From positions 1,178,001-1,242,000 of the forward strand of contig CP052876.1 in the NCBI GenBank assembly GCA_020881835.1: a stretch of DNA of 64,000 bases, read 5' to 3'. Below, piece by piece: positions 7,026 to 45,709 of the stretch. The translations under genes were made by a program, and so were the position numbers. The first letter of the stretch is position 1; the number at the start of each line of letters is the position of its first letter. The DNA comes from Kineosporiaceae bacterium SCSIO 59966. Lineage in GTDB: Bacteria; Actinomycetota; Actinomycetes; Actinomycetales; SCSIO-59966. The notes beneath the pieces were generated by a model. That model did not search any database, was not told where the DNA came from, and was given only the letters and a program-made list of their open reading frames with translations.

Positions 7026-7067
7026 GGTCCACCCGGCCCCCGGCCGGACAGCCCCGCGACCCGCCCC

Positions 7068-7573
7068 GTGATCATGCAGTCCCGCCACCCTGCGACCCGC
7101 CCGTGATCAGTCGAAAATCCCCTCTTCGTGATCATGCAATCCCGCCACCCCAGTCGTCGCCGCCTGCCCGCAAAGTGCTGAGTTCGGGGCGCGACACGCC
7201 GGCAAAGCTCTGACGGATCCAGCATTCTGTGGCCGCCGCCAGGGACTCCCGGCCTACGCGGGTGGCGGGATTGCATGAACGTGTCATGGCCGCTGGCGGC
7301 CACCCCGAGAGATGAAAGCGGGGAAAGTGGTCATGGCAGGCCACGTCGGGTCAGGCGTCTCGACCACAGAATGCTGCGTGCGGCACAGTTCGGCCGGCGT
7401 GTCGTGCCACCAACCCAGCATTCTGTAAGCGGGCGGTGGGTGCTGCTGGGGTGGCGGGAGTGCATGATCACGAGTGGGTCGTGCGGGGGTGGCGGGAGTG
7501 CATGATCACGGGTGGGTCGTGCGGGGGTGGCGGGAGTGCATGATCACGAACGAGGATTTTCGACTGATCACGG
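7068..7573. repeat. Composite intergenic repeat, site A (two elements head to head)
   Basis: This gap between convergent chdC and the GNAT gene is almost all repeat. Left part: GTGATCATGCAGTCCCGCC at 7068, then TGATCAGTCGAAAATC (7104-7119), then GTGATCATGCAATCCCGCC (7128-), then a decayed hairpin (7172-7231) and GGTGGCGGGATTGCATGA (7261-). Right part: an intact hairpin 7365-7426 (arms CACAGAATGCTG and CAGCATTCTG), then three copies of GGTGGCGGGAGTGCATGATC starting at 7450, 7488 and 7526, an exact 38-bp period, then GATTTTCGACTGATCA (7555-7570). The same modules recur at five other intergenic sites in the window. Confidence 0.9.
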
Positions 7574-12128: not shown

Positions 12129-12298
12129 CACAGAATGCTGCGTTCGACACAGGTTGGCCGGCGTGTCGCGCCACCAACCCAGCATTCTGTGAGCGGGCGG
12201 TGGAGGCTGGTGGGTGGCGGGACTGCATGATCACGAGTGGGTCGTGCGGGGTGGCGGGACTGCATGATCACGAAGGGGGGATTTTCGACTGATCATGA
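12129..12298. repeat. Composite intergenic repeat, site B
   Basis: The hairpin spans 12129-12191 with perfect 12-bp arms CACAGAATGCTG and CAGCATTCTGTG; inside it CGACAC (12145-) pairs with GTGTCG (12163-). To the right are two copies of GGTGGCGGGACTGCATGATC at 12213 and 12250 (37-bp period), then GATTTTCGACTGATCATGA at 12280-12298. There is no left arm. It fills most of the ~370-bp gap between the channel gene and the gene ending at 12362; nothing else is seen there. Confidence 0.9.
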
Positions 12299-20929: not shown

Positions 20930-21036
20930 GCCGCAACCCTGTCCGGTCACGCCGCCGCCCGCCACTTGCCATTCGCCACTCGCCACTCGTCACTCGTCGC
21001 CCTACGGCCCCCGCCAGGCGTCCCCCACCCTTTGTG

Positions 21037-21305
21037 GTGATCATGCAATCCCGCCACCCCGCACGACCCCCGTGATCATGCAGTCTCGCCACCCATCGGC
21101 CACCGGTCCGGACCACAGAATGCTGGGCTGGTGGCGCGACACGCCGCCCGAGCTGTGCCGAACGCAGCATTCTGCGGTCGGCCCTCAGGCAACCCCGCCA
21201 CCTCGCGCAAGGTGGCGGAATCGCATGATCACGGTTAGGGGGTATGGCGGTGCAGGGTGGCGGGATTGCATGATCACCAAGAGGGGGCTTTGCGAGTGAT
21301 CATGA
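21037..21305. repeat. Composite intergenic repeat, site C (most complete, both arms)
   Basis: Here the element shows two-sided symmetry. Left arm: GTGATCATGCAATCCCGCC at 21037 and GTGATCATGCAGTCTCGCC at 21072. Centre: hairpin 21114-21174 with arms CAGAATGCTG and CAGCATTCTG, in inverted orientation relative to sites A and B. Right arm: GGTGGCGGAATCGCATGATC at 21211 and GGTGGCGGGATTGCATGATC at 21256, ending with a TGATCATGA at 21297-21305. It accounts for the whole treZ-treY intergenic gap. Confidence 0.9.
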
Positions 21306-31066: not shown

Positions 31067-31234
31067 CACAGAATGCTGGGTCGAGCGCAGTTCTGCCGAC
31101 GTGTCGCGCCACCAACTCAGCAATCTGTGCGCCGGGCGGCGCGCTGGGGTGGCGGGATTGCATGATCACCAAGAGGGGACGGTCGACTGACCCCGGGGGA
31201 TGGCGCGGGGTGGCGGGATTGCATGATCACGAAG
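31067..31234. repeat. Composite intergenic repeat, site D
   Basis: The hairpin spans 31067-31129, imperfect (CACAGAATGCTG against CAGCAATCTGTG). The right arm has GGTGGCGGGATTGCATGATC at 31148 and again at 31209, the second followed by CGAAG. The usual terminal GATTTTCGACTGATCA is decayed (ACGGTCGACTGA at 31180-31191 is a likely remnant, between the two copies). It occupies half of the ~420-bp gap before thrS. Confidence 0.88.
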
Positions 31235-40814: not shown

Positions 40815-40941
40815 CGTGATCATGCAATCCCGCCACCCTGCACGCCCCTAGCGCCCGCTTCGCCACAGCATTCGGGGCTCTCCAGAATGCTGGGTTGTCG
40901 GCACGACACGCGGCGTGTTGCGCCAACAACCCAGCATTCTG
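40815..40941. repeat. Composite intergenic repeat, site E (left arm plus long hairpin)
   Basis: The left-arm motif GTGATCATGCAATCCCGCC starts at 40816. The hairpin at 40883-40941 is the longest of the family: CAGAATGCTGGGTTGT (40883-40898) pairs perfectly with ACAACCCAGCATTCTG (40926-40941), a 16-bp stem, with inner CGACACGC and GGCGTGTTG. No right arm follows; a GGGGCGAG-rich tract (40946-40988) runs into kynU. It lies between convergent pdxS and kynU. Confidence 0.9.
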
Positions 40942-44199: not shown

Positions 44200-44955
44200 A
44201 TGTCCGGCCACTCCAAGTGGGCCACCACGAAGCACAAGAAGGCGGTCGTCGACGCCAAGCGCGGCAAGATGTTCGCCAAGCTGATCAAGAACATTGAGGT
44301 GGCTGCCCGCACCGGCGGCGGTGATCCCGCGGGCAACCCCACGCTCTACGACGCCATCCAGAAGGCGAAGAAGTCCTCGGTCCCCAACGACAACATCGAC
44401 CGAGCCGTCAAGCGCGGGTCGGGGGCGGAGACCGGCGGAGCGGACTACCAGACGATCATGTACGAGGGGTACGGCCCGAACGGTGTCGCCGTGCTCGTCG
44501 AGTGCCTCACCGACAACCGCAACCGGGCGGCGTCCGACGTGCGGGTCGCCTTCACCCGCAACGGCGGCACGATGGCCGACCCGGGCAGCGTGTCGTACCT
44601 GTTCACCCGCAAGGGCGTCGTCCTCGTGCCCAAGGACGGCCTGAGCGAGGACGACGTGCTGGCCGCCGTCCTGGACGCCGGGGCCGAGGAGGTCAACGAC
44701 CTCGGTGACGCCTACGAGGTGGTCAGTGAGGCGACCGACGTCGTCGCCGTGCGCACTGCGCTGCAGGACGCCGGGATCGACTACGACTCCGCGGAGGTGC
44801 AGTTCGTCCCTGCCACCCAGGTCGAGCTGGACGCCGAGGGCGCACGGAAGATCTTCCGGCTCATCGACGCCCTCGAGGACAGCGACGACGTCCAGAACGT
44901 CTACGCCAACTTCGACGTCTCGGACGACGTGATGGCCGAGGTCGACGCGGACTGA
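44200..44955 (+). CDS. yebC: YebC/PmpR family transcriptional regulator or translation factor
   Basis: A 251-residue YebC/TACO1 protein. The start [20 protein letters not shown] and blocks [32 protein letters not shown] and [15 protein letters not shown] are diagnostic. Members are reported as DNA-binding regulators and as factors that relieve ribosome stalling at proline tracts. The position directly before ruvC is the usual one. A TAGCAT -10 candidate is at 44162-44167. Confidence 0.95.
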
Positions 44956-44964
44956 CCTGGTCCG

Positions 44965-45078
44965 GGGTGGCGGGATTGCATGATTACGAAGGGGTTGGGG
45001 GTCCGGCGGATCGTGCGGGGTGGCGGGACTGCATGATCACGAAGGGGTCGTGCGGGGTGGCGGGACTGCATGATCACG
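44965..45078. repeat. Composite intergenic repeat, site F (right-arm copies only)
   Basis: Three copies of the right-arm motif in a row, GGTGGCGGGATTGCATGATT at 44966, GGTGGCGGGACTGCATGATC at 45019 and again at 45056 (37-bp period for the last two, linked by GGGGTCGTGCGG). No hairpin and no terminal motif are present. It fills most of the 193-bp yebC-ruvC gap. Confidence 0.9.
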
Positions 45079-45148
45079 GCGGGGGTTGAGGGGGGGTGGG
45101 TCCGCGCGCCTGCGGGTCGTCGTCGGTGGCGGGTGCGAGAGTGGGCCG

Positions 45149-45709
45149 GTGCGCGTCCTGGGAGTCGACCCCGGCCTGACCCGGTGCGGTCTGGGCGTCG
45201 TCGACGGCCGTGCCGGACGGCGGGCCCAGCTGGTCGCCGTCGACGTCGTGCGCACTCCCGCCGACGCCGGTCTCGAGCTGCGGCTGCTCGCCGTCGCCGA
45301 GGTGATCGAGGCCTGGCTGGACCGGCACGCCCCCGACGTCCTGGCCGTCGAGCGGGTGTTCAGCCAGCAGAACGTCCGCACGGTGATGGGCACCGCGCAG
45401 GTCTCCGGGGTCGCCCTGCTCGCGGCCGCCCGCCGAGGGGTGCCGGTGGCCCTGCACACTCCGAGCGAGGTCAAGGCAGCCGTCACCGGGGACGGCCGGG
45501 CCGGCAAGGAGCAGGTCGCCGCGATGGTGACCCGGATCCTCGACCTGCCGGCCACGCCTCGTCCGGCGGACGCCTCCGACGCCCTCGCGCTCGCCGTCTG
45601 CCACCTGTGGCGCGGCTCGGCGCCGACCGCCGTTGCCGGCCACAGCGGCGCGCCGACGGCGGCGCAGTCGGCGTGGGCGCAGGCCATGGCCGCCTCCCGG
45701 CGGCGGTGA
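45149..45709 (+). CDS. ruvC: Holliday junction endonuclease RuvC
   Basis: A 186-residue resolvase. The four acidic residues are at the canonical positions: Asp7 (LGVDPGL), Glu68 (LAVERVF), Asp141 and Asp144 ([10 protein letters not shown]). It cuts four-way junctions processed by RuvAB. The GTG at 45149 is chosen since it puts these residues in register; the 21-residue upstream extension covers repeat F remnants. Confidence 0.96.

What the first reader, a model, noticed from the sequence alone, without database searches (positions are those of the whole stretch)
7068..7573. Uncharacterised composite repeat family at six intergenic sites
Three recurring modules are seen: a ~63-nt nested hairpin (arms CAGAATGCTG/CAGCATTCTG), a ~24-nt motif GGTGGCGGGA-y-TGCATGATCACG, and a terminal GATTTTCGACTGATCA. 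They occur at about 7.1, 12.2, 21.1, 31.1, 40.9 and 45.0 kb, always between genes, in both orientations and in partial forms. If the density is typical, a genome would hold hundreds. No protein is encoded in any copy, and no REP-associated (Y1) transposase is in the window, so this looks like a non-autonomous element mobilised in trans, or an abundant structured RNA. Site A also shows two elements head to head.
Basis: partly seen in the sequence, partly recalled or inferred. Interest (0 to 1): 0.8.

Follow-up and report, generated by a model that had tools for sequence, protein, structure and literature searches.

The report
REP-like repeats hosting an IS110 element
An actinobacterial genome carries about 430 copies of a 23-letter motif and about 120 copies of a 59-letter hairpin at the ends of its genes, without the enzyme that normally accompanies such repeats, and a jumping gene appears to use an RNA guide to land in the motif.

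Summary
The window's modules belong to two repeat families in a 3.10 Mb Actinomycetales genome. M is a 23-bp motif, GGTGGCGGGA(T/C)TGCATGATCAC(G/C), with 430 copies (control 0). P is a 59-nt hairpin with about 120 copies. The "terminal" module is a tail 28-30 bp from the start of an M. M copies point outward from cluster centres in 33 of 33 two-orientation regions, and clusters favour gene 3' ends (26/57 convergent, 45/192 tandem, 5/108 divergent intergenic regions). M is nearly invariant (5% divergence) while its flanks are close to random (54%).

No Y1/RAYT gene was found in the genome or in nine other repeat-bearing genomes searched. All seven copies of an IS110-family element sit at the same position in M, and its 3' non-coding end holds a predicted bridge-RNA target loop whose two guides match M. 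P has no compensatory changes within the genome. In at least three other families the same apical palindrome carries different but complementary arms, so the structure itself is conserved.

Best reading: BIME/REP-like mosaics that spread without RAYT and serve as IS110 landing pads. How they are copied is unknown.

The parts
7067..7089 (-). M, 23-bp motif (site A, left block)
   Evidence: exact match
7104..7119 (-). tail module GATTTTCGACTGATCA following the M at 7127-7149
   Evidence: exact match; spacing
7127..7149 (-). M (site A, left block)
   Evidence: exact match
7171..7229 (-). P, 59-nt hairpin (site A, left; decayed arm)
   Evidence: CM hit 1185165-1185235:-, E 9.9e-22
7261..7278 (+). 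variant M sharing 18 bp, then ACGTGTCATGGCC...
7367..7425 (+). P (site A, right)
   Evidence: CM E 1.8e-25
7450..7548 (+). three tandem M copies (7450, 7488, 7526; period 38)
   Evidence: exact matches
7555..7570 (+). tail module
   Evidence: exact match
12131..12189 (+). P (site B)
   Evidence: CM E 6.2e-28
12213..12272 (+). two tandem M copies (12213, 12250)
   Evidence: exact matches
12280..12295 (+). tail module
   Evidence: exact match
21036..21093 (-). two M copies (21036, 21071; 1 mismatch each), site C left block
21116..21174 (-). P (site C)
   Evidence: CM E 1.3e-24
21211..21278 (+). two M copies (21211, 21256), site C right block
31069..31127 (+). P (site D)
   Evidence: CM E 2.2e-21
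31148..31231 (+). two M copies (31148, 31209)
40815..40837 (-). M (site E)
   Evidence: exact match
40883..40941 (+). P (site E), the most symmetric copy in the window
   Evidence: CM hits on both strands
44966..45078 (+). three M copies (44966, 45019, 45056), no hairpin, between two same-strand genes (site F)

Best explanation
These are BIME/REP-like mosaics built from two interspersed repeat families that spread without a Y1 (RAYT) transposase. Family M is an asymmetric 23-bp motif set in outward-facing blocks, so that the left and right blocks of a cluster can pair. Family P is a 59-nt hairpin, usually between the blocks. Shown: copy numbers, orientation rule, 3'-end preference, sharp conservation boundaries, absence of Y1, cross-family persistence of P with swapped complementary arms, and the fixed position of IS110 in M. 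Inferred: copies arise as short hairpin-forming DNA and survive mainly where they do least harm, at gene 3' ends and away from promoters. When transcribed, the paired M blocks and P form stable stem-loops that would attenuate read-through or protect mRNA 3' ends in both directions, as proposed for E. coli BIMEs. Secondarily, M is a landing site: an IS110-family element encodes in its 3' non-coding end a predicted bridge-RNA loop with left guide CCUUCGU and right guide AUGAUCAC, matching (C)TTCGT|GATCAT at the edge of M, and recombines at the GT core. The copying machinery is not identified.
For: Copy number and control: 430 M, about 120 P. Orientation rule 33/33. Context 26/57 convergent, 45/192 tandem, 5/108 divergent regions, taking the motif-bearing regions against all intergenic regions of 60 bp or more. 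Motif against flank divergence 5% v 54% between clusters and 2% v 38% between neighbours. No PF01797 in G000, in G015, G100, G114, G142, G086, G156 or in G063, G017, G034, with positive controls ringing. Inverted M-like pairs in relatives fold as perfect hairpins (-49.5 kcal/mol, z -11.5). The P apical palindrome is enriched in G015 (17), G063 (12), G017 (5) with genome-specific complementary arms, again at gene 3' ends (9 convergent, 10 tandem, 1 divergent). IS110: PF01548 + PF02371, 7/7 copies at M, guide matches and fold. IS110 elements are known REP targeters (PMC1525189, PMC11208160).
Against: A single M is not palindromic, unlike a classical REP. No GTAG/CGTC tag. No both-sided compensatory change in P arms inside the genome; more than half of the P copies have a clash at pair 11. 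No empty site or recent transposition was demonstrable. M-only and P-only clusters exist, so no fixed composite unit is copied. The 3'-end function is untested. A strong conserved function of M (selection) would explain the motif/flank contrast as well as copying does.
Confidence: 0.55

Rival explanations
1. M is a functional host site (a DNA-protein binding site, gyrase or roadblock site, or bidirectional 3'-end/termination signal) kept by purifying selection; its tandem and inverted arrangement is functional and there is no selfish spread.
For: 23-bp conservation with sharp edges and near-random flanks; 3'-end bias; strict outward orientation; divergent arrays keep M while spacers drift.
Against: M is absent from almost all related genomes (3 of 396 at up to 1 mismatch); about 430 near-identical copies are unusual for a binding site; regions with a single M orientation show no clear polarity relative to the upstream gene (16 facing v 12 away); no U-run terminator follows the hairpin in the aligned copies.
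Confidence: 0.22
2. MITE-like non-autonomous DNA transposon with M blocks as terminal inverted repeats around P, mobilised in trans by a non-Y1 transposase.
For: Inverted, outward M blocks around P; P-like hairpins in three further families, homogeneous within each genome and different between genomes, suggesting lineage-specific expansion.
Against: No constant unit length, no target duplication seen, M and P occur separately, flanks up to the motif edge are unrelated. The repeated ISs seen in the sample (IS110, ISL3 and others) do not carry M or P as ends; IS110 and one ISL3 copy are inserted into them.
Confidence: 0.13
3. Abundant structured RNA family (P as ncRNA or 3'-UTR RNA element).
For: 59-nt length fixed in 68/69 copies; fold z -4.4 and -2.0 for two copies; arm variants leave mostly G-U pairs on the strand with the conserved half 5' (about 80 v 11 cells, counted); arms co-vary between genomes.
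Against: No both-sided change within the genome, both orientations relative to genes, no Rfam family in the window except tRNAs, no expression data.
Confidence: 0.08
4. Chance or composition artefact of a 73.6% GC genome.
For: G-rich spacers are low in complexity.
Against: Reversed-pattern control 0 against 430.
Confidence: 0.01

Closest known systems
REP sequences / BIMEs (E. coli, Pseudomonas)
   Same: Short, hundreds of copies, extragenic, favour 3' ends and convergent gaps, inverted pairs and tandem arrays, targeted by IS110 elements.
   Different: Single M is not palindromic; no GTAG or CGTC tag; order is strictly outward blocks around a separate hairpin; no Y1/RAYT in any carrier searched; Actinomycetales host.
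REPIN-RAYT system
   Same: Inverted pairs forming hairpins, within-genome homogeneity.
   Different: The RAYT is absent from the genome and from nine other carriers searched.
IS621 / ISPpu9 / ISPpu10 (IS110 family, REP-targeting)
   Same: PF01548 + PF02371 recombinase, insertion at one fixed position of the repeat, 2-bp core, 7/7 copies in the repeat (as for ISPpu9 and ISPpu10, PMC1525189).
   Different: GT core (bridge-RNA work used CT); predicted bridge RNA in the 3' end, as in the IS1111 group; different target repeat.
Neisserial NIME (dRS3-flanked RS) arrays (recalled from memory, not tested)
   Same: About 20-bp inverted repeats flanking longer intergenic repeats, used as recombinase targets.
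   Different: Sequence, host phylum and the conserved apical hairpin.

Membership tests
REP/BIME | more than 100 copies, extragenic | tested here: met
   430 M, about 120 P; 223/231 sampled M outside predicted genes
REP/BIME | individual unit is an imperfect palindrome of 20-40 nt | tested here: not met
   M alone folds like shuffled sequence, z 0.17; only inverted M pairs and P are palindromic
REP/BIME | alternating or inverted arrangement in mosaics | tested here: met
   33/33 two-orientation regions are '- then +'
REP/BIME | GTAG or CGTC tag at one end (most REPs, PMC3733652) | tested here: not met
   M ends are GGTGGCGG and TGATCAC(G/C); P ends are CAGAATGCTG
REP/BIME | target of REP-specific insertion sequences | tested here: met
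   IS110 in M, 7/7 copies
REPIN-RAYT | Y1 (PF01797) transposase in the genome, flanked by the repeat | tested here: not met
   0 matches in G000 and nine other carriers; controls positive
MITE | terminal inverted repeats with constant unit | tested here: inconclusive
   inverted M blocks, but unit length and number of M vary
MITE | target-site duplication / empty sites | not testable with these tools
   no other genome of the same family is held
MITE | autonomous partner with the same ends | tested here: inconclusive
   none among repeated ISs in an 864-kb sample; the rest of the genome was not read
Structured ncRNA family | compensatory base changes among copies | tested here: not met
   0 both-sided changes in 14 pairs, 61 sequences; between genomes arms are replaced jointly
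Structured ncRNA family | expressed transcript | not testable with these tools
   no RNA-seq
IS110 family (the inserted element) | DEDD domain PF01548 and serine domain PF02371 | tested here: met
   E 1.7e-18 and 3.2e-22
IS110 family (the inserted element) | bridge RNA with target guides matching the insertion site | tested here: inconclusive
   7-nt and 8-nt guide matches in an internal loop of a -39.4 kcal/mol stem; not shown by experiment, donor loop not analysed

The most novel reading that the evidence does not exclude
P is a distinct, ancient class of mobile or maintained hairpin. An unknown, non-Y1 factor recognises the conserved tip CGACACGCCGGCGTGTCG in at least four actinomycete families while the stem arms are free to be replaced as complementary pairs; M is a second, unrelated repeat that has become the programmed landing site of an IS110 bridge RNA. 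This would be a REP-like system with a different engine.
Probability: 0.25. Interest if true: 0.8.

Novelty: new variant of a known kind. Interest (0 to 1): 0.55.

Why it matters
REP/BIME repeats are usually explained by RAYT transposases. Here a dense REP-like population (about one M per 7 kb) is present in genomes with no detectable Y1 enzyme, so another copying or maintenance route must exist or the enzyme has been lost. The hairpin family, with one conserved tip and swapped arms across families, is a natural experiment that can tell what is recognised. The IS110 element gives a natural case in which predicted bridge-RNA guides match an abundant safe-harbour repeat, with 7 of 7 insertions as a test set.

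Tried and rejected
1) Chance or composition: rejected by reversed-pattern controls. 2) RAYT/Y1 engine: no PF01797 match in ten carrier genomes. 3) Known RNA family: only tRNAs in the window. 4) Covariation inside the genome: a first structure string was two columns out of register and was discarded; in register there are no both-sided changes. 5) Centre-symmetric covariation across genomes failed because the hairpins have small asymmetric bulges; the arms were read from folds instead. 6) Intrinsic terminator: no U-run after the hairpin in the aligned copies. 7) Strand-polar signal for the upstream gene: single-orientation tandem regions are 16 facing v 12 away. 8) A RAYT-like gene flanked by the repeats: genes flanked on both sides in the sample include a MarR-, a Maf- and a MiaB-like gene (my reading of the sequences) and IS110 copies. 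9) Spread by plasmids or viruses: no match in plasmids; the 18 viral-contig hits are scattered, most of them single, and look like chance. 10) IS110-like genes in G100 and G015 have no M nearby. 11) Papers: no description of these sequences found.

Full report
Observation. The window is G000:C1:1178001-1242000 of a single-contig 3,095,448-base genome; the window is 73.6% G+C. M, the 23-mer GGTGGCGGGANTGCATGATCACG, occurs 430 times at up to three mismatches (221 forward, 209 reverse) and 405 times at up to one, with zero hits for the reversed control pattern. The hairpin P is found at about 120 distinct places by a covariance model built from 61 copies; only 150 candidates were scored, so this is a lower bound.

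Anatomy. I read 864 kb (28% of the genome: the window plus 40 stretches) and called genes with a codon-usage script. It holds 231 M copies in 81 clusters. In M only position 11 (T/C) and position 23 (G/C) vary appreciably. Tandem copies are most often 37 bp apart. Between clusters M differs at 5% of sites, and the 14 bases beside it differ at 54%, close to the 58% expected for random sequence of that composition. So either M alone is copied, or M alone is held constant. In all 33 intergenic regions with both orientations, every minus copy lies left of every plus copy; the hairpin, where present, is usually between the blocks. Motif-bearing regions are 26 of 57 convergent gaps, 45 of 192 tandem gaps and 5 of 108 divergent gaps of 60 bp or more (a few motif-bearing gaps are slightly shorter than 60 bp). 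In tandem gaps the nearest M is a median 34 bp from the upstream stop codon.

Structure. A lone M does not fold better than shuffled sequence (z 0.17), whereas an inverted M-like pair from a relative forms a 24-bp hairpin (-49.5 kcal/mol, z -11.5). P is 59 nt long in 68 of 69 copies, with its 3' half more conserved than its 5' half. Its ten outer pairs are mostly intact, but no pair shows a both-sided change across 61 copies. Single changes more often leave a G-U pair when the conserved half is read first (about 80 cells against 11, counted), which is suggestive only.

Relatives. A looser pattern finds 31 copies in G015 and 19, 7 and 3 in three genomes of another family (G100, G142, G114). There the copies often form tight inverted pairs. 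P is matched by the model in G015 (E down to 5e-7). Its apical palindrome is also enriched in G063 (12) and G017 (5), genomes of two further families. The arms differ completely but remain complementary: CAGAATGCTG/CAGCATTCTG here, AGAATGCTGC/GCAGCATTCT and CTGTGCGACGTTC/GAACGTCGCACAG in G015, GGGGACGTTC/GAACGTCCCC in G063, GAGAGGTCACC/GGTGACCTCTC in G017. These hairpins too lie at gene 3' ends: 9 convergent, 10 tandem and 1 divergent. Thus P is an older, separate family whose stem is conserved as a structure, while each genome has its own homogeneous set of arms.

Engine. The Y1 transposase family (RAYT and IS200/IS605) has no match in G000, in G015, G100, G114, G142, G086 and G156, or in G063, G017 and G034, while five control genomes ring. 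In the sample, genes flanked on both sides by M include a MarR-, a Maf- and a MiaB-like gene and IS110 copies. No engine was found.

IS110. A 1.7-kb element with PF01548 and PF02371 is present in seven copies. All seven read ...TCGT|AGTAATGG...CTTACGCTG|GTGATCATGCARTCCCGCCACC, that is, one fixed position in M with the dinucleotide GT at both edges. The 3' non-coding end folds into a -39.4 kcal/mol stem with an internal loop carrying CCTTCGT (identical to the left target) and ATGATCAC (complementary to the right target GTGATCAT). This is the architecture described for bridge RNAs, with the RNA in the right end as in the IS1111 group (PMC11208160). IS110 elements in REP sequences are known: ISPpu9 and ISPpu10, 7/7 copies each (PMC1525189), and IS621. 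One ISL3 copy lies in a P arm with CAGAATGC repeated on both sides. M and P were therefore there before these insertions.

Verdict. The repeats behave like REP/BIME mosaics, but they fail the palindromic-unit, tag and RAYT criteria, so I do not file them as REPs. They are best called a RAYT-independent, REP-like variant. Shown: abundance, orientation rule, 3'-end bias, IS targeting, absence of Y1, cross-family hairpin conservation. Inferred: passive spread with tolerance at gene ends, and an effect on transcript 3' ends. Not tested: expression, gain and loss, binding factors.

Noticed in passing
G000:C1 2528159-2529866 and six more copies (L161, L164-L169): IS110-family element, seven copies, each in M at the same position, all on the + strand of the assembly; predicted bridge-RNA target loop in its 3' end.
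   Followed up: yes
window 7261-7360 and six other places in the sample, e.g. G000:C1 318038, 1134162, 2955045: Variant M sharing 18 bp and then running into ACGYCTCATGGCCGCTGGCGGCCACC..., apparently a further repeat module with its own GGCCGCTGGCGGCC hairpin.
   Followed up: no
G000:C1 1342357-1343780: ISL3-like element (by its protein sequence) inserted in a P arm with the 8 bp CAGAATGC repeated on both sides; two more copies lie elsewhere.
   Followed up: partly
G000:C1 646596-647041 and 650638-651046: Tandem amplification of a whole P+M unit with 129/131-bp periods.
   Followed up: no
several regions, e.g. G000:C1 598550, 646596, 1992606 and regions with M starting 4 bp before a gene end: Predicted genes end inside M, whose TGATCA core supplies a TGA stop on both strands.
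   Followed up: no
G000:C1 2495328: Short tandem array of GGCATTCTGTGGTCGA derived from the right arm of P.
   Followed up: no
window 44955-45149: Site F places three M copies between two same-strand genes, the second reading like RuvC, so M also occurs inside a possible operon.
   Followed up: no
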